DNA from: Chloroflexota bacterium
GTDB taxonomy: Bacteria > Chloroflexota > JAJPGV01
NCBI GenBank assembly: GCA_021325635.1
Contig: JAJPGV010000037.1
Span: 1 to 64,000, forward strand
Length of the DNA stretch: 64,000 nucleotides
Reading direction: 5' to 3'
Part shown: in pieces, positions 51,771 to 63,870 of the stretch
Layout of the letters: each line of letters opens with the position of its first letter
How positions within the stretch are numbered: position 1 is the stretch's first letter
Position numbers and translations under genes: made by a program
Notes under the pieces: generated by a model
Databases searched by the model: none
What the model was told of the DNA's origin: nothing
Seen by the model: the letters and a program-made list of their open reading frames with translations, nothing else

Positions 51771-52124
51771 ATTCCGACATACATCGCGCTGACGGTTTAT
51801 CTCGGCCTGGCAGGCGCCCTGGTCGTGGCCCTGATCTTCATTTCGGGGCGCCTATCGCCCCATCACCCTACCCCCGCCAAGCTCGAGCCGTATGAGTGCG
51901 GGATCTCCGAGCCAACCCCCACCGAGTCGCGCTGGCCGGTACGTTTTGCCCTGGTCGCTATGCTGTTCCTGATCTTCGACGTCGAGGGTCTGTTTCTCTA
52001 TCCCTGGGCAGCATTGATGCGTGACCTTGGCTGGACAGGCATCGAGGTCATCGCCAGCTTCTTCGTCATCCTTGGCGTCGGCTACGTGTACGCTCGTTCC
52101 CGAGGAGCGCTCGAATGGCGGTAG
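51771..52124 (+). CDS. nuoA: NADH-quinone oxidoreductase subunit A (NuoA)
   Basis: Membrane subunit of complex I. Standard-start annotation would begin at GTG 51825, removing most of TM1. The frame is open from 51753 and reads [20 protein letters not shown] before that GTG, a normal NuoA TM1; ATT 51771, six bases after GGGGA, is the likeliest start (117 residues). The conserved [11 protein letters not shown] loop and [12 protein letters not shown] in TM2, with the Asp and Glu of the quinone/proton path, are intact. It overlaps nuoB by 10 bases. Confidence 0.88.
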
Positions 52125-52597
52125 AGCACCCCGAGCTGCACGTCAAGGATGCCGCTCCCGCGTTTTTCCTCGGCCGCATCGAAGAGTGGAGCCGGGAAAA
52201 TTCGCTATGGCCGGTGATGTTCGGCCTGGCCTGCTGCGCTATCGAGATGATGGCCACATCGGCGTCGCGCTTCGATCTCGCCCGCTTTGGTTCCGAGCTA
52301 TTTCGTCCCAGCCCGCGACAGGCGGATCTCATGATCGTCTCCGGCAGGGTCTCGCAGAAAATGGCCCCGGTGCTCAAAGAGATCTACGACCAGATGCCGG
52401 ATCCCAAGTGGGTCATCGCCATGGGCGATTGCGCGGCCTGCGGTGGGATATTCAACAACTACGCCGTCATACAGGGAGTGGACAAGATCGTCCCGGTGGA
52501 CGTGTACGTGCCTGGCTGTCCGCCCCGTCCCGAAGCGCTCCTCGACGGGATCATCAAGCTCAAGGAGCGGATCCGGGAGCGCTCGCGGGCTCAGTGA
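52115..52597 (+). CDS. nuoB: NADH-quinone oxidoreductase subunit B (NuoB)
   Basis: A 160-residue subunit holding cluster N2, which gives electrons to quinone. The four Cys ligands are seen: the pair in [10 protein letters not shown], one in MGDCAACGG and one in [29 protein letters not shown] is the usual block next to the quinone site. ATG 52115 lies inside the nuoA end; it overlaps nuoC by four bases. Confidence 0.97.
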
Positions 52598-52986: not shown

Positions 52987-53000
52987 GAGCGCCAAGCCTC

Positions 53001-54191
53001 GTGCCTGACCTGCTCGTCAGCGATCGCCCCGAAATCCTGCACATCAACCTTGGGCCACAGCATCCGTCGACCCACGGCGTGCTGCGCGTCGAGCTGCTGC
53101 TCGACGGCGAGATCGTGGTCGAATGCCAGCCCGTGATCGGCTACCTCCACACCGGCATCGAGAAGACGTTCGAGCACCGCACCTATCTGCAGAACGTCAC
53201 CATGACCGACCGTCTCGACTATCTCAATCCACTGGGCAATAACCTGGCCTATGCCCTCAGCGTCGAGAAGCTCTTCGGCTGCGACGTCCCCGAACGGGCC
53301 CAGATCGGCCGCGTGCTGCTGGCCGAGCTGACGCGTATCAATTCCCATCTGGTCTGGACGGGCACCACCGCGCTCGATCTCGGCGCGAACTCCGTGTTCC
53401 TCTACACCTTCCGGGAGCGCGAGCAGCTGCTGGATCTATTCGAGGAGCTCAGCGGCGCTCGGATGATGACGAGCTTCATCCGGCCAGGCGGCCTGTTTGC
53501 CGATTTGCCGGCAGCCTGGCTCGACAAGGTGAGCAGCTTCCTGGACGTCTTGCCGAAAAGGATCGACGACTACGAGAGCTTGCTGACCGACAACCCGCTC
53601 TTCAGGGAACGGACCATTGGGGTGGGCGTCCTGTCGGCCGAGGACGCCCTGGCGGTAGGCGTAAGCGGACCCATGCTGCGGGCTTCGGGCGTCGACTTGG
53701 ACCTGCGCAAGGCCAAGCCATACAGCATGTATGAGCGCTTCAACTTCGAGGTGCCCGTGTACACCCATGGCGACTGCTACGACCGCTACCGGGTGCGCAT
53801 AGCCGAGCTCCGCCAGAGCATTCTCATCTGCCGTCAGGCGCTGAACATCCTGCCCGAGGGCTCGGTTCGGACGTCAGACCGCAAGGTGATGCCACCACCA
53901 CGCAGCGAGCTGGCCGGCTCTATGGAGGCGGTGATTCATCACTTCAAGCTGTACACAGAAGGGCCCCGGCCACCGGCCGGCGAGGCCTACGTCGGCGTCG
54001 AATCACCACGCGGCGAGCTGGGCTTCTTCGTCGTCAGTGACGGCACGGGCAAGCCGGTCCGCTGCCGGGTGCGAGCGCCCTCCTTCGCCAACCTGCAAGC
54101 GCTGCCGCTGATGGCCAAGGGCGGGCTCATAGCCGACCTGATCGCCATCATCGCCAGCATCGATCCTATCCTGGGCGAGGTCGACAGGTGA
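53001..54191 (+). CDS. nuoD: NADH-quinone oxidoreductase subunit D (NuoD)
   Basis: A 396-residue 49-kDa subunit lining the quinone pocket. GTG 53001 begins just before ILHINLGPQHPSTHGVLR, the quinone-site His motif. YLHTGIEKTFEHRTY, DYLNPLGNNLAYALSVEKL and the C-terminal IIASIDPILGEVDR are all standard. It overlaps nuoE by four bases. A Tyr of the quinone headgroup site is expected in this fold but I did not place it with certainty. Confidence 0.97.
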   Translation: MPDLLVSDRPEILHINLGPQHPSTHGVLRVELLLDGEIVVECQPVIGYLHTGIEKTFEHRTYLQNVTMTDRLDYLNPLGNNLAYALSVEKLFGCDVPERAQIGRVLLAELTRINSHLVWTGTTALDLGANSVFLYTFREREQLLDLFEELSGARMMTSFIRPGGLFADLPAAWLDKVSSFLDVLPKRIDDYESLLTDNPLFRERTIGVGVLSAEDALAVGVSGPMLRASGVDLDLRKAKPYSMYERFNFEVPVYTHGDCYDRYRVRIAELRQSILICRQALNILPEGSVRTSDRKVMPPPRSELAGSMEAVIHHFKLYTEGPRPPAGEAYVGVESPRGELGFFVVSDGTGKPVRCRVRAPSFANLQALPLMAKGGLIADLIAIIASIDPILGEVDR

Positions 54192-54720
54192 ACGTCCAAG
54201 ATCAGGAAGCCGCGGGCAGCGCCTCCCCGCTCTCCGCGGCCGTTGAAGAGCGTATTCGCGCCGAGGTGGGCAGGTACCCTCAGCGGCGTACGGGACTGCT
54301 GCCGGCGCTCAAGATCGCCCAGGAGGAAACGCATTTCCTGCCGCCGCCGGTGATTGCGCGTGTAGCCGACATGGTCGGCGTGTCGCATGCATCGGCCAAT
54401 GAGCTGGTGACGTTCTACTCGATGCTGCGGACGAAGCCCCTGGGGACGACCGTCGTAGAGGTGTGCGCGCAGCTGCCGTGCGCGCTGCGCGGGGCGGATG
54501 AGCTGCTCGGTCTGCTGGCCGCGGCGCTCGAGATCGAACCCGGGGACACGACGCCGAATGGCGCCGTGACGCTGCTGCGATCGCACGAATGCTTCGGGGC
54601 CTGCAATCGAGCCCCGATGTGCGTGGTCAACGACGAATACCGCGAGAACCTCCGAGGTAAGGCTCTGGAAGCGTTCCTCGCCGAGGTTGAGACTGCCGCC
54701 GGCCTGGAAGGACAAACGTC

Positions 54721-54724
<4 letters not shown>
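54188..54724 (+). CDS. nuoE: NADH-quinone oxidoreductase subunit E (NuoE)
   Basis: A 178-residue 24-kDa subunit with the N1a [2Fe-2S] cluster: Cys in VCAQLPCAL and the pair in HECFGACNRAPM. The N-terminal helical part has RRTGLLPALKIAQEETHFLP and VSHASANELVTFYSM. GTG starts overlap at both ends show coupling to nuoD and nuoF. Confidence 0.95.
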
Positions 54725-55986
<1,262 letters not shown>

Positions 55987-56007: not shown

Positions 56008-57705
56008 GTGGCTGAAGCGCTCCCACCGGTCACGGTCATCATCGACGGCCAGGAAGTTCGCGTTCCGAAGGGCACATTGCTGATCGAAGCTGCCAAGAAG
56101 GCTGGCGTCGAAATCCCCGTGTTCTGCTACCACCCCAAAATGAAACCCGTCGGGGCCTGCCGCATGTGCCTGGTCGACATACAGAAGATGCCCAGACTCC
56201 AGACGGCCTGCACCACCCCCGTGAGCGAGGGCATGATCGTCCATACGCGCAACGACCGGGCGACCGCCGGCCAGAAGGCTGTGCTGGAGCTGATGCTGGC
56301 CAACCACCCGCTCGATTGCCCGATCTGCGATAAGGGCGGCGAATGCCCGCTGCAGGACAACACCTTCAAGTTCGGCCTGGGCGTGAGCCGCTTCACAGAG
56401 CCCAAACGAAAGCTCGCCAAGGCGATCCCGCTGTCCGAGCGGATCGTGCTCGACCGCGAGCGCTGCATCATGTGCTACCGCTGCGTCCGCTTCCAGGATG
56501 AGATCGCCGGCGATCAGGCGCTGGCCGCCATGGATCGAGCCGGCACGAGTCAGATCGGCGTGCTCGACGGCGAGACGTTCGATTCACCATTTTCGGGCAA
56601 CACCATCGACCTCTGCCCGGTTGGCGCCCTGCTGAGCCGGCAGTATCGGTTCCGAGCCCGACCCTGGGACCTGCAAAGGACGCCGTCGATTTGTGCCGGC
56701 TGCGCGGTCGGCTGCAACGTGGAGCTGCACGCTCGCGACCGAGCATTGCAGCGTATGGTTCCCCGCGAGAACATGGCTATCAACAACGAATGGCTGTGCG
56801 ACTTCGGGCGGTTCGACACCCTGCCACTCGGCATAGAGCGCCTGCGGGAGCCAGCGGTGGACGGCCAGCCCACGTCGTGGGCCGAAGCCCTGGAGTCCGC
56901 GGCCGAGCTGCTGCGATCGGGACCGACCGAAGTGATCGTCTCGCCGTCGATTACGAACGAGGCCCTCAACGCGGCCACCACCATTGCTCGCGAGCTCAAA
57001 GCCGGCCTGGGGGTGTGGCCAGCGACGACCGGTCAGGTTCGCCGCACGATCCAGGACCTGGTGACTTCCAAGACGATCATCCTGCTCGGGCTGGATGTGT
57101 GGCGAGCGCTGCCGGTGCTAGCGCTGCGCGTCCGCGAGGCGCTCAAGGCCGGGGGCAAGCTGTATTTCGTAGGGGCGGGAGCCAACGGTCTGTGGCGCGA
57201 CACGTCCGCCACGTTCGCCACCGTCGAGGAGCTCGTCCAGGCGCTCACGCACGACGGCGCTCTTCCCCAGCCGATCTCCATCCTTGGGTGGGGAGCCGAC
57301 GCGCTCGGTGATGAGCTCGCGGCGGAAGGCATGGTCGGCTCGCCCGCGACTGCCGCCAACGGCGCGGCCATGACCGGCCTGCCAAAGGCCACCTTCGAAG
57401 CGCCCGTCCAGCTGCTCGTCGGCAACGAAGATTGGCCTCTGCGCTCCTCAGCCAGCGCCCGGATTCAGCTGCGCTGGTCAGCCGCCGGTGACGCAGCCGA
57501 TCGGCCCTCGATCGTTTTGCCGCTGGCCCATCCTTACGAACAGACCGGATCGTTGATCAACCTCGAGGGAACGGTCCAGCAGCTCCATCCCGGAGCCGCA
57601 GCACCCGCGGCGGCTCACCCGGATTGGCTGGCGCTGGCCGAGCTCGCCGAGGCGCTGCACATCTCCGCCGCGCCGGACATGGAGACCAACGCTGCCCTGG
57701 CTTGA
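56008..57705 (+). CDS. nuoG: NADH-quinone oxidoreductase subunit G (NuoG)
   Basis: A 565-residue 75-kDa subunit; shorter than E. coli NuoG (908). N1b: CYHPKMKPVGACRMC. N5 has a His ligand and CPICDKGGECPLQD. N4: RCIMCYRCVRF with NTIDLCPVGAL. After them, CAGCAVGCNVEL and NEWLCDFGRF supply the four Cys of the extra cluster N7, known from E. coli and Thermus. The rest is a shortened molybdopterin-oxidoreductase-like region without a bound-cofactor signature. GTG 56008. The end overlaps the extended nuoH frame. Confidence 0.96.
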   Translation: MAEALPPVTVIIDGQEVRVPKGTLLIEAAKKAGVEIPVFCYHPKMKPVGACRMCLVDIQKMPRLQTACTTPVSEGMIVHTRNDRATAGQKAVLELMLANHPLDCPICDKGGECPLQDNTFKFGLGVSRFTEPKRKLAKAIPLSERIVLDRERCIMCYRCVRFQDEIAGDQALAAMDRAGTSQIGVLDGETFDSPFSGNTIDLCPVGALLSRQYRFRARPWDLQRTPSICAGCAVGCNVELHARDRALQRMVPRENMAINNEWLCDFGRFDTLPLGIERLREPAVDGQPTSWAEALESAAELLRSGPTEVIVSPSITNEALNAATTIARELKAGLGVWPATTGQVRRTIQDLVTSKTIILLGLDVWRALPVLALRVREALKAGGKLYFVGAGANGLWRDTSATFATVEELVQALTHDGALPQPISILGWGADALGDELAAEGMVGSPATAANGAAMTGLPKATFEAPVQLLVGNEDWPLRSSASARIQLRWSAAGDAADRPSIVLPLAHPYEQTGSLINLEGTVQQLHPGAAAPAAAHPDWLALAELAEALHISAAPDMETNAALA

Positions 57706-58681
57706 GACGGGACTGGACGCGGCCAAGTCGCTGCTGCTCATCCTGCTGCTGCTGACGGCGATGGCCTACATGACCTGGTTCGAGCGCCGGGTCATCGGAC
57801 GGTTGCAGGTGCGCTTGGGCCCCAACCGCGTGGGGATAGGCGGACTGCTGCAGCCTTTGGCCGATGCCCTGAAGCTGTTCTTCAAAGAAGACGTCCGTCC
57901 GGCGCGGGCCGACCGGATCCTCTTCCCGCTGGCTCCCGCCATTTCGCTTTTCGCCGCGCTGGCGGCCTTCGCCGTCATCCCCTTCGGGCCCACGACGCGC
58001 ATTGCCGGAGTGGAGGTCCCCGGCGGCATTGCCAACCTGCAGGTTGGCCTGCTCTACCTCGTCGGCATTTCGAGCTTGGGCGTCTACGGACTGGTCCTGG
58101 GCGGCTGGTCGTCCGGCTCGAAATATTCACTCATCGGCGGCCTGCGGGCAGCGGCGCAGGTGGTCTCGTACGAGCTGATCCTGGGTCTGGCGTTGGTATC
58201 TGTTGCCCTCGTCGCCGGCACACTGTCGCTCGAAGGAGTAGTTGGCGGCCAGGCCAACGGACTTCCCTACGTGATCCTGCAGCCGGTCGCCTTCCTGCTC
58301 TACCTCGTCGCCGCGGTGGCGGAGACGAACCGCGCCCCCTTCGATCTGCCCGAAGCAGATACGGAGCTCGTGGCGGGCTACCACACCGAATACGGCGGCA
58401 TGCGCTTCGCCATGTTCTTCATCGCCGAATACGTCAACGTCATCACTGTCTCGGCCCTGGCGGCGACCATGTTCTTCGCGGGCTGGTCGGGGCCCTTCCT
58501 GCCCGGGCCGCACTGGCTGTTCATCAAGATGCTGGCCTTCCTGTTCCTGTTCGTCTGGCTCCGCGCCACCCTGCCGCGGCTGCGCTACGACCAACTGATG
58601 CGGTTATCCTGGTCAGTGCTCTTGCCTCTGGCTCTGATAAATCTCCTGGCGACGGCTGTGGTCGTCGCGGTAACACGGTAA
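57692..58681 (+). CDS. nuoH: NADH-quinone oxidoreductase subunit H (NuoH)
   Basis: Membrane subunit forming the quinone chamber roof and the E-channel. The first standard start is ATG 57761, giving AYMTWFERRVIGRLQVRLGP without TM1. Upstream in the same frame lies LPWLETGLDAAKSLLLILLL, the expected NuoH N-terminus, so initiation is probably at CTG 57692, overlapping nuoG by 14 bases (329 residues). Core motifs are intact: NRAPFDLPEADTELVAGYHTEYGGMRF is present as consecutive blocks with the acidic residues of the quinone loop, and FAMFFIAEYVNV follows. Confidence 0.92.
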   Translation: MPWLETGLDAAKSLLLILLLLTAMAYMTWFERRVIGRLQVRLGPNRVGIGGLLQPLADALKLFFKEDVRPARADRILFPLAPAISLFAALAAFAVIPFGPTTRIAGVEVPGGIANLQVGLLYLVGISSLGVYGLVLGGWSSGSKYSLIGGLRAAAQVVSYELILGLALVSVALVAGTLSLEGVVGGQANGLPYVILQPVAFLLYLVAAVAETNRAPFDLPEADTELVAGYHTEYGGMRFAMFFIAEYVNVITVSALAATMFFAGWSGPFLPGPHWLFIKMLAFLFLFVWLRATLPRLRYDQLMRLSWSVLLPLALINLLATAVVVAVTR

Positions 58682-58685
58682 AGAC

Positions 58686-59258
58686 ATGCTGAACGGAGTT
58701 GGCGCGCTGCTGCGCGGCCTGTGGACCACGCTGAAACACAGCGTGCGGCCGGCGATCACCGTCAGGTACCCGGAACAGAAGCGCACGGTCTCGGCCAATT
58801 TCCGAGGCCGTCATCGCCTCTACCGGCACGATAACGGGCTCGAGCGCTGCATTGGCTGCGAGCTGTGCGCGGGCGCCTGTCCTTCCCAGGCCATCCTGGT
58901 CGAGCCCGCGGAGAACGACAGCGAACACCCGGTCTCGCCCGGCGAACGGTATGCCAAGCGGTACGAGATCAACATGATCCGCTGCATCTTCTGCGGACTG
59001 TGTGAAGAGGCCTGCCCGGTTGACGCCATAAAGCTCGGACCGGAATACGAGCTGTCCGACTACGACCGAGGATCGTTCGTCTACACCAAGGAGATGCTGC
59101 TCGACCCCGAGCACTATGCTCCCCGGCGCCAGGTGCACGCCGACGTGGACGTCCCGCGTCCGGGCTACACCGACGGTGGCAAGGGCCTCTCGGACCTGTA
59201 TGGGACCTACCGGCCGATGTCGTCTTCGACGCCGAGAGCCAAGCGTGATGAAGCATGA
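58686..59258 (+). CDS. nuoI: NADH-quinone oxidoreductase subunit I (NuoI)
   Basis: A 190-residue subunit with clusters N6a and N6b. Two ferredoxin motifs are complete: CIGCELCAGACPSQAI and CIFCGLCEEACPVDAI. The N-terminal helix and VRPAITVRYPEQKR are typical. The start ATG 58686 follows nuoH by four bases. The Ser/Pro-rich C-terminal tail is slightly long. Confidence 0.96.
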   Translation: MLNGVGALLRGLWTTLKHSVRPAITVRYPEQKRTVSANFRGRHRLYRHDNGLERCIGCELCAGACPSQAILVEPAENDSEHPVSPGERYAKRYEINMIRCIFCGLCEEACPVDAIKLGPEYELSDYDRGSFVYTKEMLLDPEHYAPRRQVHADVDVPRPGYTDGGKGLSDLYGTYRPMSSSTPRAKRDEA

Positions 59259-59331
59259 GCCGGGCCGTCTCCCTCCGCGACGCCTGGACAGCGCCCAGGG
59301 CCCAGTCCCCAGCGCCCCTTCGCGCTTGCTG

Positions 59332-59862
59332 ATGGATCCCCTGCTCGGGCCAATAGTCGCCGCCTGCGTGGTGGCGCTGGCTTCGGCGCTGCTGGTCGTC
59401 CTGGCTCAGGGAGCTATCCGCGCAGTCGTGGCCCTGCTGGCCCACAGCCTGTCGATTGCCGCCCTGTACGCGCTGCTCGCCGCCGGGCTCGTGGCCGTGG
59501 GGCAGCTGCTGATCTACTCCGGCGCGATTGTCGTTGTGTTCCTGTTCGTGGTGGCGCTGCTGCCTCCCGGTGGGCGTGAGCTGCACTCTCAACCGCGCCG
59601 GGTTGTCACCGGCATCGCCGTCGGAGCAGCCCTGCTGGCAGCGCTCTACACCGGCCTCGGACCGACCATCAGCGCCCAGGCACAGCTGCTCGCCGGTCCC
59701 GCCGGCTCAGCCGTCCCCAGCGGCCTGGGCTCCGTTGCAGGCATTGGCCACGAGCTGTTCGACGCCGACAAGCTGCTCGTTCCGTTCGAGCTTACGGCGC
59801 CGCTCCTGTTGGTGGCAATCATCGGCTCGGTGGCGCTGTGGCGTCGTCAGGGGACGCCCTGA
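59332..59862 (+). CDS. nuoJ: NADH-quinone oxidoreductase subunit J (NuoJ)
   Basis: A 176-residue subunit with five TM helices. VGQLLIYSGAIVVVFLFVVAL contains the TM3 pi-bulge region with its Tyr, so the coupling element is conserved. ATG 59332 sits just before the first helix; earlier in-frame starts back to 59245 overlap the nuoI end and would add about 29 hydrophilic residues, leaving the start uncertain. nuoK begins 22 bases later. Confidence 0.9.
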   Translation: MDPLLGPIVAACVVALASALLVVLAQGAIRAVVALLAHSLSIAALYALLAAGLVAVGQLLIYSGAIVVVFLFVVALLPPGGRELHSQPRRVVTGIAVGAALLAALYTGLGPTISAQAQLLAGPAGSAVPSGLGSVAGIGHELFDADKLLVPFELTAPLLLVAIIGSVALWRRQGTP

Positions 59863-59884: not shown

Positions 59885-60187
59885 ATGACAGCCAATATCG
59901 TTGTGCTGGCCACGAGCGCCATCCTGTTTTCGACCGGCGCAACCGGCGTGATGCTGCGCCGCAACCCGGTTGCCATGCTGATGTGCATCGAAATCATGCT
60001 CAACGCCGGGAACCTGGTACTCGTGCTCGGCTCGCGAGCACGCGGCAACGATGCCGGACAGGCGATCGCGCTGATTGTCCTGGTGATTGCCGCGGCCGAG
60101 GCCGTGGTCGGACTTGGACTGGCGCTGGTCCTGTTCCACCGCCGCGAGCCAGTCGACGTCGACGAGCCACGGGCGGTGCAGGGATGA
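59885..60187 (+). CDS. nuoK: NADH-quinone oxidoreductase subunit K (NuoK)
   Basis: A 100-residue subunit with three TM helices, normal length. The two membrane glutamates of the proton path are present, in MCIEIMLNAGNLVLV (TM2) and IAAAEAVVGLGLAL (TM3). ATG 59885 has GAAGAGGGG before it. The stop overlaps nuoL by four bases. Confidence 0.95.
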   Translation: MTANIVVLATSAILFSTGATGVMLRRNPVAMLMCIEIMLNAGNLVLVLGSRARGNDAGQAIALIVLVIAAAEAVVGLGLALVLFHRREPVDVDEPRAVQG

Positions 60188-61878
60188 GCCAGGTGCTCGC
60201 CTGGGGCTTCCTGCTGGTGATTCCCGGGCTCCTGCTCGGCTCGACCGGCGCCGTCAAGCGGCCGGGATTGGCCAGCATCCCAGGGGTCGCCGTCCTGCTC
60301 TCGATCTCGATCGCATGGCTGGCCGGGGCGGGGCAGCCGGCCACCGTGGAGCTGGACAATTGGCTGCCCTTCCTGCCCGACGGCCGGTTCCTGCTACGGG
60401 TCGACGCCCTATCGGCGTTCATGCTGGCCGTACTCGGCCTCGTCGCCATCTGCGTGTACGTCTACTCATTGGGCTACATGGAGGGCGATCCCGGTATTCG
60501 CCGTTTCTTCGCATTCCTGGACGTGTTCGTTGGCGCCATGGCGCTGCTGGTAGTTGCCGGCAATCTGGCCGTGCTGCTGATCGGCTGGACCGGTGTCGGC
60601 ATGACCAGCTATTTCCTCATCAGCTTCTGGCGCGAAAAGCCGCGAACGCTCAATGCCGGCCTGCAGGCCATCGCCGCCAACGCTGTGGGCGACGCCGCCC
60701 TGATTCTTACGGCCGTCGTGGTGCCATCCGGCTGCGGGGACCTGACCACCCTGCAAACTCCGTCCTGCACGGCCGGCATCGGCGGAGCGGCGCTGCTGGC
60801 CGCGCTGCTCATCGTCGCCGCCTCGGCAAAGTCAGCGCAGGGGCCGCTGTACTTCTGGCTGCCCAGCGCGATGGCCGGACCGACACCTATCAGCGCCCTC
60901 ATTCACGCTGCCACGATGGTTGCGGCGGGCGTCTACCTCCTCGCTCGGACGCAGCTGGTGCTGTCGTTGAGCCCGATCGCTTTGAGCGCAGTCGCGGCGC
61001 TAGGCGTGGCCACGGCACTGTTCGGCGCCGTTATGGCGCTGCGGCAGTCCAACCTCAAGAAGGGCCTCGCCTACTCGACCGTCAGCCAGCTAGGCTACAT
61101 GTTCGCGGCCATAGGCTTCAGCGCTCCCTTCGCCGCCATCTTTCATCTGGGCAGCCAGGCCATGTTCAAGGCGCTTCTGTTCCTATCGGCCGGAGCTGTC
61201 ATCCATGCCCTTGGCGGCAAGGAAGAGCTGTCGGACATGGGCGACCTGGCCAGGCACATGCCCGGCGTTCGGCTGGCCTTCCTGGTGGGAGCCTGCTCTC
61301 TCTTTGGCTTTCCCCTGACGGCCGGCTATTTCAGCAAGGACGCGATCGTCGACGCCGGTCTCGAACGCTTCCCCGCCCTGGCATGGCTGCTGGTCATTGG
61401 CGTGCTGCTCAGCGGTTGGTACATCGGCCGTCTGTTCTTCGCCACGTTCCATGGCAAGGCGAGCCAGGCAGCGGGTGAGCGGCAGTTGCATCCGATTTCG
61501 AGATTGCTGACCTGGCCTCTCGTTCCTCTGGCCGCCGGGTCCGTTCTCTTCGGTTATGTCAATTTCCCGTCAGGCTGGCTCGCGCGTCTGCTCGTCCCCA
61601 CCACAAGCGCCTCCACCTCACAGCCCTTCATCACCGGGGCCGGCGTCGTCGCACTTGCTCTGGGCCTCATCGGATTCGCCGGCGCTGGTTGGTGGGAGCA
61701 GCGTCAAGCGCGAAGCGTTGCGGCACTGCCGCGGCCCAGCTGGACTGATTGGGCCGGGGCTGCCAGCGTCAAGCTGTCCACTTCCGTTGCCGCTATCCAA
61801 AATGGCCGAACAGGCCGCTACGTCCTCGCAACCGTCCTTGGCTTAGCGGTCATCCTCGTGGCGGGACTTAAAGGCTAA
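60184..61878 (+). CDS. nuoL: NADH-quinone oxidoreductase subunit L (NuoL), altered TM5
   Basis: A 564-residue antiporter-like subunit, somewhat shorter than E. coli NuoL (613). Typical blocks: VDALSAFMLAVLGLVA, AKSAQGPLYFWLPSAMAGPT (TM7 Lys216 kept), SALIHAATMVAAGVYLLAR, LKKGLAYSTVSQLGYM, FHLGSQAMFKALLFL and GYFSKDAI (TM12 Lys kept). TM5 reads LIGWTGVGMTSYFLI: residue 136 (codon ACC at 60589) is Thr where NuoL, NuoM and NuoN carry the essential Glu (E. coli Glu144). Aligned against the E. coli 'WLADAM' block, an Asp also becomes Ser. It overlaps both neighbours. Confidence 0.93.
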   Translation: MSQVLAWGFLLVIPGLLLGSTGAVKRPGLASIPGVAVLLSISIAWLAGAGQPATVELDNWLPFLPDGRFLLRVDALSAFMLAVLGLVAICVYVYSLGYMEGDPGIRRFFAFLDVFVGAMALLVVAGNLAVLLIGWTGVGMTSYFLISFWREKPRTLNAGLQAIAANAVGDAALILTAVVVPSGCGDLTTLQTPSCTAGIGGAALLAALLIVAASAKSAQGPLYFWLPSAMAGPTPISALIHAATMVAAGVYLLARTQLVLSLSPIALSAVAALGVATALFGAVMALRQSNLKKGLAYSTVSQLGYMFAAIGFSAPFAAIFHLGSQAMFKALLFLSAGAVIHALGGKEELSDMGDLARHMPGVRLAFLVGACSLFGFPLTAGYFSKDAIVDAGLERFPALAWLLVIGVLLSGWYIGRLFFATFHGKASQAAGERQLHPISRLLTWPLVPLAAGSVLFGYVNFPSGWLARLLVPTTSASTSQPFITGAGVVALALGLIGFAGAGWWEQRQARSVAALPRPSWTDWAGAASVKLSTSVAAIQNGRTGRYVLATVLGLAVILVAGLKG

Positions 61879-63185
61879 TGGCCGGCCTTCCCTACGTCTC
61901 TATCGCCTGCCTCGTCGCGGGTGCGCTGCTGGTTTTGGCACTGGCCGGCCCGTTGACCCAGCGTCGCTGGGCGCTCGCCGGCATGGGGCTGCTAAGCGCG
62001 ATTGCGGCCGCCGCCGGCGCTCGGATTGGCGCCGGCCTGGGTGGACCACTTGCCGTCTATGCCATCTGCGCTTTTCTCGTCGTAACGCTGCTGTTGACGC
62101 CATCACTCGAGCTGCAGTACGCACAGCAGCGACCCGAATCGGCCGCCCTCCTGCTGCTCGCGGGAGCCGGCACGATCATCATGGCCACCGGCGGCGACCT
62201 GCTGCAGATGACCATCGGCATGGAAACGCTGTCGCTCAGCTCGGCGCTGCTGGTCGTCCTCGGCCGAGGAGAGGCCGTGGCCGAAGCCGCCTTCAAGTAC
62301 TTCGTGCTGGCGGCCGTCAGCCTGACCGCGCTGATCTACGGCCTTGGGTTGATCTACTTCTCCACCGGGTCGATTGGGCTGCCGCCGCCCGGCTCGGCCA
62401 TGAGCCTGTCGCTGCTGGCCGGCATCGTGCTCATGAGCGCGGGCTTCGCCTTCGAGCTCGCCCTGGTACCCCTGCACTGGGGCGCACTCGACCTGTATTC
62501 CGCGGGATCACCGGCCGCGGCGGGGGCGGTCATGGCCCTGAGCAAGCTGGGGGCGGTGGTTGCGCTGATACGGCTGGTGCCGATCGCCGGGTCCAGCTAT
62601 CTATTCGTCATCGGCATGCTGGGGCTGCTCACGGCCATCTGGGGCACGCTGGCGGCCCTAGGACAACGCGAGATCCGCCGGCTGCTGGCCTACTCCGCCA
62701 TCGCCCATGCCGGCTTCCTGGCCATGGCCATCGGATCAGGAGCAGCGGGAGCCAGCGCCGCGGTCTTCTACGTCATCGCCTATGGCGCCACGGCCATGCT
62801 GGTATTCGCGGCGCTGGCCGGGGCGGGCCCGGATGCCATCTCGTTCGCCGAGCTGCCAGCCAAGCTGGGCCTGCAGCGCAGTCTGGCGCTGTGCATCGGG
62901 CTGATGTCCCTGGCCGGCATTCCGCCGCTGCCAGGTTTCTGGGCCAAGCTGGCGCTATTCGGATCCACCTGGCAGGCGCTCGGTCCCGTACCCACGATCC
63001 TTGGAGTCGCCGCCGCCGTTGCCGCGGCGGTGTACTACCTCTACCCGGTGCCCGATCTATGGAGCACGCTGCGCCTGCCGGGTAAGCTGCGCCTACATGG
63101 CAATGCGGGCGTGCTGGCCGCAGGCGCCGCGACGCTGCTGCTGACGATCGTACCCGGATACCTCTGGGCGCTGATCAGACCGTAG
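61878..63185 (+). CDS. nuoN: NADH-quinone oxidoreductase subunit N (NuoN), altered TM7
   Basis: A 435-residue antiporter-like subunit starting at ATG 61878, one base into the nuoL stop. NuoN identity rests on IGMETLSLSSALLV (TM5 Glu116), EAAFKYFVLAAVSLTALIYG, LLAYSAIAHAGFLAMAIGS and LAGIPPLPGFWAKLALF. TM7 reads AGFAFELALVPLHWG: residue 193 (GAG at 62454) is Glu where the proton-path Lys is expected (E. coli Lys217 in 'FKLSLVPFH'). Lysines in VMALSKLG and GFWAKLAL are kept. No nuoM lies before or after; this ends the operon. Confidence 0.93.
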   Translation: MAGLPYVSIACLVAGALLVLALAGPLTQRRWALAGMGLLSAIAAAAGARIGAGLGGPLAVYAICAFLVVTLLLTPSLELQYAQQRPESAALLLLAGAGTIIMATGGDLLQMTIGMETLSLSSALLVVLGRGEAVAEAAFKYFVLAAVSLTALIYGLGLIYFSTGSIGLPPPGSAMSLSLLAGIVLMSAGFAFELALVPLHWGALDLYSAGSPAAAGAVMALSKLGAVVALIRLVPIAGSSYLFVIGMLGLLTAIWGTLAALGQREIRRLLAYSAIAHAGFLAMAIGSGAAGASAAVFYVIAYGATAMLVFAALAGAGPDAISFAELPAKLGLQRSLALCIGLMSLAGIPPLPGFWAKLALFGSTWQALGPVPTILGVAAAVAAAVYYLYPVPDLWSTLRLPGKLRLHGNAGVLAAGAATLLLTIVPGYLWALIRP

Positions 63186-63201: not shown

Positions 63202-63831
63202 TTACCGGCCCAGCGCCACGTCCGGCGCAAGCTTTTCACCGGAGCCATCGAGGAAGTGCAGCGCCAGCGCCCCAGGAGGGAGCGCTATTTGCGCCACCTG
63301 GACGCCGCGTGAATCCCGCTCGAGAATGGCGTTGAGGTCGTCGCCCCGCAGCGCCAGCCGCTGAAAACGGACGGCCAACCCCCAGACTTCGACCTTGCCC
63401 TGAAACGCCTCCGGGCAGCCGTTGTGCACGGCGGCATCGTCTGCCCACAGGCCGGACAGCTCAATGAAGTCGCCGAAGGCGCTGGCCGACCGGAAGGGTC
63501 CGCCTTCGACGTGGATCCGCTCTGGGCGCAGCCGGCTGAAGTCGATGCCGGCGTAGCGCGGATTCTGGAGCAGGTGTGCCGCCTGGGCTTCCGCATCGGG
63601 CGGCACCCAGCTCACGTCGCTGAAGCACAGGTCGAATGGAACGGACTCTTCCGGCGACGACGCTGGCAGGCTAGGCTGTGTCGCGGCCACGTAGCGCGCC
63701 GGCAGCTTCATGCCCCAGGCAATGATGGCCAGCAGCCCAATCGCGGCGGGCACGAGCCAGCGTACCCAGCGACGGCGCCTGACGGGATCGAGCTCGACCG
63801 GGCGGAGATGGCGGCCGGGCGAACGGTCCAT
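63202..63831 (-). CDS. Hypothetical single-pass membrane protein
   Basis: About 209 residues of unknown function. The N-terminal basic segment and one TM helix (WLVPAAIGLLAIIAWGM, about residues 25-45) suggest a cytoplasmic tail and an outer domain. The outer part is mixed alpha/beta with two Cys (FDLCFSDV and HNGCPEAF). ATG 63831 is used; GTG 63855 would add eight residues. It follows moaA on the same strand by about 39 bases and converges with nuoN. Confidence 0.6.
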   Translation of the reverse strand: MDRSPGRHLRPVELDPVRRRRWVRWLVPAAIGLLAIIAWGMKLPARYVAATQPSLPASSPEESVPFDLCFSDVSWVPPDAEAQAAHLLQNPRYAGIDFSRLRPERIHVEGGPFRSASAFGDFIELSGLWADDAAVHNGCPEAFQGKVEVWGLAVRFQRLALRGDDLNAILERDSRGVQVAQIALPPGALALHFLDGSGEKLAPDVALGR

Positions 63832-63870
63832 CACCTCAACGGCGCCGGCAGCCACTCCCCAAAGTCAAGC

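What the first reader, a model, noticed from the sequence alone, without database searches (positions are those of the whole stretch)
60580..60610. NuoL lacks the TM5 glutamate
The TM5 block reads GWTGVGMTSY in place of GWEGVGLCSY; the ACC codon at 60589-60591 gives Thr136. This Glu (E. coli NuoL Glu144) is essential for pumping and near-universal in Mrp-type subunits. The partner Lys216 in TM7 remains. The subunit may pump poorly or through another route.
Basis: partly seen in the sequence, partly recalled or inferred. Interest (0 to 1): 0.75.

Follow-up and report, generated by a model that had tools for sequence, protein, structure and literature searches.

The report
Complex I missing one pump module
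A bacterial respiratory complex I encoded here has dropped one of its three pump modules (NuoM) and, in the outermost module, the glutamate long held to be essential for proton pumping, so it is a natural test of which parts of this enzyme are really needed.

Summary
In detail: NuoL (60184-61878) has Thr136 (ACC, 60589-60591) where E. coli NuoL has Glu144. It is not a sequencing error: ten relatives in Chloroflexota and Planctomycetota have Thr, Ala or Ser there, never Glu. The claim of near-universality fails in this phylum: of 61 NuoL from 60 Chloroflexota genomes, 15 lack the Glu, against 0 of 30 in Pseudomonadota. Its ion-pair partner on TM6 (E. coli Arg175) is lost with it, while Lys229 and Asp178 stay. 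Most of these Chloroflexota complexes still have NuoM and NuoN with all key charges.

The larger finding lies outside the coordinates. The operon is nuoABCDEFGHIJKLN and has no nuoM. Eleven such NuoL form one clade; they lack about 38 residues of the lateral helix (E. coli 528-565, including residues reported to touch NuoM); in 9 of 10, NuoN carries Glu instead of the TM7 Lys. The ten genomes checked also carry NuoM in a separate cluster. Best reading: a two-module complex I with an ungated distal module and fewer protons pumped per NADH. The anatomy is shown; the stoichiometry is inferred.

The parts
51825..52124 (+). nuoA (start uncertain)
   Evidence: tblastn co-linear with nuoA of relatives
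52115..52597 (+). nuoB
   Evidence: NCBIfam NuoB, 244 bits
52594..52983 (+). nuoC (start uncertain, GTG)
   Evidence: tblastn to nuoC of relatives
52995..54191 (+). nuoD (start approximate)
   Evidence: NCBIfam NuoD, 558 bits, over cut-off
54188..54724 (+). nuoE
   Evidence: NCBIfam nuoE_fam
54721..55986 (+). nuoF
   Evidence: NCBIfam nuoF_fam
56008..57705 (+). nuoG, short (565 aa; E. coli 908)
   Evidence: NCBIfam NuoG; length compared
57761..58681 (+). nuoH (true start probably upstream, near 57700)
   Evidence: NCBIfam NuoH; open TM1-like frame upstream
58686..59258 (+). nuoI
   Evidence: NCBIfam NuoI over cut-off
59248..59862 (+). nuoJ (start uncertain)
   Evidence: NCBIfam NuoJ
59885..60187 (+). 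nuoK, conserved E36 and E72 present
   Evidence: aligned with E. coli NuoK
60184..61878 (+). nuoL, 564 aa, clade without NuoM
   Evidence: NCBIfam NDH_I_L 410.6 bits, over cut-off; fold Z about 45
60589..60591 (+). Thr136 in place of TM5 Glu (Ec E144)
60682..60684 (+). Ala167 in place of TM6 Arg (Ec R175), the lost ion-pair partner
60691..60693 (+). Asp170 (Ec D178), kept
60829..60831 (+). Lys216 (Ec K229, TM7), kept
60520..60522 (+). Asp113 on TM4 (Ec N121), an acid present in all 11 clade members
61696..61806 (+). shortened lateral helix (HL); Ec 528-565 deleted, last helix (TM16-like) kept
61878..63185 (+). nuoN, directly after nuoL; no nuoM between or after
   Evidence: NCBIfam NDH_I_N 184 bits, below cut-off
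62454..62456 (+). NuoN Glu193 in place of TM7 Lys (Ec K217)

Best explanation
The operon encodes a 13-subunit complex I (A-K, L, N) with two antiporter-like modules instead of three. NuoM was lost, and the NuoL lateral helix was shortened by about 38 residues so that NuoL can dock directly on NuoN (docking inferred). Before that, the wider Chloroflexota NuoL lineage lost the TM5 Glu / TM6 Arg ion pair (Ec E144/R175) but kept K229/D178. In the published gating model this leaves NuoL without its 'closed' pair: an always-open, ungated proton relay and exit rather than a switching module. NADH oxidation, quinone reduction and the E-channel look intact, so the enzyme should still couple, but with fewer protons per NADH than 4 (my guess 2-3). 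It works beside a separate, NuoM-containing complex in the same cell. Shown: gene content, residue changes, one clade, purifying selection. Inferred: docking, open state, stoichiometry.
For: Gene order A-L-N without M in the window and nine relatives where the region is covered (L045 starts inside G), A-L in the eleventh locus, which ends with its contig; at the NuoM-less locus the PF00361 search finds only L and N (L alone in the truncated contig), with NuoM in a separate antiporter-gene cluster in the 10 genomes listed, and no further antiporter gene in G192, G401, G144, G160. NuoL clade 94/99 support. HL stretch 33-45 aa against 71-81 in most canonical NuoL, including Glu-less ones that keep NuoM, so the shortening goes with NuoM loss, not with Glu loss; the gap covers Ec 528-565, including P564 and L565; P564-N566 are reported closest to NuoM (PMC3274701). 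The inverse is published: an extra NuoM comes with a 26-aa HL insert (PMC9040806). E144/R175 co-loss. The two NuoL ion pairs and their open/closed roles, and a natural Glu-less relative (DabB2, Ile151), are described in PMC13144422. NuoN K217A in E. coli keeps pumping while K247 and K395 are essential (PMC13073174); the clade keeps exactly K247 and K395. dN/dS 0.13-0.29. E-channel residues kept in H, J, K.
Against: E. coli NuoL E144A/Q is reported to abolish activity (PMC3046159), so the distal module could simply be dead. The 38-residue deletion is longer than the 26-aa insert linked to one NuoM. HL could not be modelled with confidence (pLDDT mostly under 50 after residue 510). E144/R175 co-loss rests on few independent events (sign test not significant). 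No biochemistry exists.
Confidence: 0.6

Rival explanations
1. The distal NuoL is a pumping-dead but structurally needed cap; only the E-channel and NuoN translocate protons.
For: E144A/Q in E. coli NuoL is reported to abolish activity; the clade also lost K169, D241 and D303, conserved in nearly all others or in all but the sister lineages.
Against: The proton-path residues K229, D178, H254, K305, H334, K342, K399, D400 are kept in 11/11 and H338 in 10/11; dN/dS is low. A dead cap would not need them.
Confidence: 0.2
2. Full-stoichiometry pumping with a substitute acid, for example the TM4 Asp (window D113) found in the clade.
For: Asp at Ec N121 in 11/11 of the clade and also in Glu-less NuoL of two families and L109, never in the Glu-containing set compared.
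Against: Most Glu-less canonical NuoL have Asn there, so no acid substitutes in general; the distance to Lys216 could not be measured; a missing NuoM still removes a module.
Confidence: 0.12
3. NuoM is borrowed from the second complex in the same cell, giving a normal three-module enzyme.
For: NuoM is encoded in a separate antiporter-gene cluster in the 10 genomes checked.
Against: The deleted HL segment is where E. coli NuoL contacts NuoM; a shortened HL is unlikely to reach over three modules; sequences of the two complexes are far apart.
Confidence: 0.06
4. Ordinary neutral drift at TM5: the Glu is dispensable in this lineage and nothing about pumping changes.
For: Glu-less NuoL with intact NuoM and NuoN occur in several Chloroflexota families.
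Against: Arg175 and NuoM H248, H367 differ together with it, so it looks like concerted remodelling, though shared descent could also explain that; this does not address the lost NuoM.
Confidence: 0.1
5. Sequencing or assembly artefact.
For: MAG contig; reads not available.
Against: Eleven independent loci in two phyla agree.
Confidence: 0.01

Closest known systems
Canonical 14-subunit complex I (E. coli, Thermus, mitochondria)
   Same: NADH, quinone and E-channel parts; NuoL fold; Lys/His chain in NuoL
   Different: No NuoM; HL about 38 residues shorter; no TM5 Glu or TM6 Arg in NuoL; TM7 Lys to Glu in NuoN
2M complex I of Nitrospira and Complex_I_3 of Ca. Manganitrophaceae (PMC9040806)
   Same: Natural change in the number of antiporter modules matched by a change in HL length
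   Different: Opposite direction: module lost and HL shortened instead of added and lengthened
DabB2 of the DAB2 CO2-hydration complex (PMC13144422)
   Same: NuoL-like subunit that naturally lacks Glu144 (Ile151), keeps the Lys/Asp pair, and has a short HL
   Different: DabB2 keeps the Arg (R182); not part of a NADH:quinone oxidoreductase
Glu-less NuoL of Chloroflexota complexes that keep NuoM (found here, e.g. L089, L091-L096, L098-L103)
   Same: Ala/Gly/Asn at TM5 and no Arg175
   Different: Full-length HL, NuoM present, NuoN Lys217 present

Membership tests
Complex I (type I NADH:quinone oxidoreductase) | NADH module NuoEFG and connecting subunits NuoBCDI | tested here: met
   NCBIfam matches for B, D, E, F, G, I; C by tblastn
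Complex I (type I NADH:quinone oxidoreductase) | Proximal membrane part NuoA, H, J, K with E-channel acids | tested here: met
Complex I (type I NADH:quinone oxidoreductase) | Three antiporter-like subunits NuoL, M, N | tested here: not met
   Only L and N in the operon, here and in the relatives; hence called a variant
Complex I (type I NADH:quinone oxidoreductase) | NuoL TM5 Glu / TM7 Lys pair | tested here: not met
   T136 and K216
Complex I (type I NADH:quinone oxidoreductase) | Redox-driven proton pumping | not testable with these tools
   No biochemistry
NuoL/ND5 subunit | NuoL fold and family score, C-terminal HL plus last helix | tested here: met
   TIGR01974 410.6 bits over cut-off 407.5; Z about 45; HL shortened, last helix kept
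2M complex I | Two NuoM and a longer HL | tested here: not met
   Zero NuoM, shorter HL
Mrp antiporter / DAB complex | MrpA-type or DabA partner in the operon, no NADH module | tested here: not met
   Operon is nuoABCDEFGHIJKLN

The most novel reading that the evidence does not exclude
A natural two-module complex I with fewer protons per NADH, whose distal module runs without the Glu/Arg switch; and, in sister lineages, complete three-module complexes that also run without it, which contradicts models that require a proton hop from NuoM TM12 to NuoL TM5 Glu.
Probability: 0.5. Interest if true: 0.82.

Novelty: new variant of a known kind. Interest (0 to 1): 0.68.

Why it matters
How complex I pumps, and through which module, is disputed. 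The 'domino' model says a TM12 proton of NuoM must pass to the neighbouring NuoL TM5 site (PMC10212512); ion-pair gating models use E144/R175 (PMC13144422). Here are enzymes, kept by selection, without that residue, some of them with an otherwise complete set of charges, and one clade without NuoM at all. They allow a direct comparison of module number, gating residues and H+/e- ratio. I found no description of a complex I lacking only NuoM in the papers searched; many papers are not held, so this is not proof of novelty.

Tried and rejected
Sequencing error: rejected by relatives. A substitute acid at the same site: none in the alignment. A general compensating acid in Glu-less NuoL: none found; in NuoM mainly losses of H248, H367 and E364, in NuoN none at the known axis residues. 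An M-less clade in Pseudomonadota: no match in 297 genomes above 419 bits, against about 680 or more for the clade. In Planctomycetota only 1 of 392 sampled genomes; in Chloroflexota 8 of 400. E144/R175 as a phylogenetically independent covariation: too few events for a significant sign test. NuoN structure job (ticket p280f1d2574b8) did not finish. The Chadwick 2018 paper is not held. An antiporter-like gene on contig C10 as a trans NuoM: too divergent, no family over cut-off, and no such extra gene in four other genomes.

Full report
Observation. The NuoL frame 60184-61878 reads ...LLIGWTGVGMTSYF...; codon 136 at 60589-60591 is ACC, Thr. The block aligns without gaps to E. coli GWEGVGLCSY, so Thr136 stands on Glu144. 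The predicted fold is ordinary NuoL (mean pLDDT 76.5; Z about 45 and rmsd 2.2-2.6 A to E. coli, Thermus and mycobacterial NuoL). Lys216 (Ec K229), Asp170 (D178), His241 (H254), Lys385 and Asp386 (K399, D400) of the proton path are present; Ec H338 is Gln in the window alone.

The operon. Upstream lie nuoABCDEFGHIJK in order, and nuoL is followed directly by nuoN; there is no nuoM. Close relatives came from one Chloroflexota and three Planctomycetota MAGs (52-60% identity). A survey of 400 Chloroflexota genomes gave 8 with this NuoL type (680-941 bits; the next best 439), namely the window's own genome, the MAG already found and six more. All have the same operon without nuoM as far as their contigs reach: L043 stops inside nuoL and L045 begins inside nuoG. 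In the ten genomes searched for the antiporter family, this locus holds only L and N (L alone in the truncated contig), and NuoM lies in a separate antiporter-gene cluster; four genomes have no antiporter gene beyond these two clusters. The window's genome likewise has a second complex I cluster with L, M and N on contig C25 and a hydrogenase-4-like complex on C24.

Lateral helix. The NuoL of these eleven form one clade (94/99) and the complete ones are about 560-590 aa long. Against E. coli they lack residues 528-565; the HL stretch has 33-45 residues (24 in the truncated L043) against 71-81 in most others, including Glu-less NuoL that keep NuoM. In E. coli, residues P564, L565 and N566 are those closest to NuoM (PMC3274701). 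The published converse is a 26-residue HL insert where an extra NuoM was added (PMC9040806). The deletion therefore fits the loss of one module, though it is longer than that insert.

The glutamate. All eleven clade members lack Glu (T 6, A 4, S 1). But among canonical-length NuoL of the phylum Glu is also often absent: in a spread of 60 Chloroflexota genomes, 61 NuoL gave 45 Glu/Arg, 15 nonGlu/nonArg and 1 Glu/Ala at positions 144/175 (Fisher p = 2e-13, but shared descent inflates this), against 30/30 Glu/Arg in Pseudomonadota. These 61 are the matches to the window NuoL at E 1e-60 or better, so very distant NuoL are not covered. On the tree the changes are few (Glu 4, Arg 3; two independent pairs on well-supported branches), so the coupling is strong in pattern but thin in independent events. 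TM7 Gly228 to Ala goes the same way. In 13 Glu-less clusters with NuoM and NuoN adjacent, NuoM keeps E144, K234, K265, E407 and NuoN keeps E133, K217, K247, K395 in every one; their NuoM differ in H248 to Tyr (13/13 against His 14/14) and H367. In two Glu-less genomes NuoM and NuoN are not next to nuoL; antiporter-gene pairs lie on other contigs.

NuoN. In the clade NuoN keeps E133, K247 and K395 in 10/10 but has Glu for K217 in 9/10. In E. coli K217A halves NADH oxidase but keeps most or all pumping, while K247A and K395A are severe (PMC13073174).

Mechanism. PMC13144422 describes two NuoL ion pairs, K229/D178 and R175/E144, proposed to alternate between open and closed states; DabB2, which naturally has Ile for the Glu, is proposed to sit in the open state, and putting Glu back halved growth yield. 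By the same logic the window NuoL lacks the closed pair altogether and should be an always-open relay. The 'domino' model needs NuoL TM5 as partner of NuoM TM12 (PMC10212512); the Glu-less three-module complexes are a natural exception to be tested. In E. coli E144A/Q is reported to abolish activity (PMC3046159), so either the lineage found another way or the distal module no longer pumps. Purifying selection (dN/dS 0.13-0.29) and the kept Lys/His chain favour a working module.

Limits. HL is not modelled with confidence; the NuoN model did not finish. Stoichiometry is inference.

Noticed in passing
window 60184-61878 and 10 relatives: Clade-specific losses of otherwise near-fixed NuoL charges: Ec K169 (to Gln, once Asp), D241 (to Ser/Asn/Thr), D303 (to Asn, also in sister lineages), and acids at Ec N121 (Asp) and A404 (Asp/Glu, TM12).
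   Followed up: partly
window 61156-61158: NuoL Ec H338 (the TM11 His region) is Gln in the window only; His in the other 10 clade members.
   Followed up: no
L089, L091-L096, L098-L103: NuoM of Glu-less Chloroflexota complexes has Tyr instead of the conserved His248 (DAHxEAPT motif) and Gly/Asn/Gln instead of His367, 13/13 each.
   Followed up: partly
window 56008-57705: NuoG is only 565 aa (E. coli 908).
   Followed up: no
window 57690-57761: The first TM helix of NuoH lies upstream of the first ATG, so translation probably starts at a non-ATG codon near 57700.
   Followed up: no
L048 10869-12902 (Pseudomonadota MAG): A NuoL-like protein with Lys at the TM5 Glu site (GWKLVG) next to two more antiporter-like genes; its genome has 10 antiporter-family hits.
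   Followed up: no
L008 1264-2637 (G000 contig C10): A very divergent antiporter-like protein of 457 aa with no family match over cut-off.
   Followed up: partly
L090 and L097: In two Chloroflexota genomes of one family nuoL is not followed by nuoM and nuoN; pairs of antiporter genes lie on other contigs.
   Followed up: partly
window 63202-63855 (-): Protein of about 217 aa with one N-terminal hydrophobic stretch and no Pfam or NCBIfam match.
   Followed up: no
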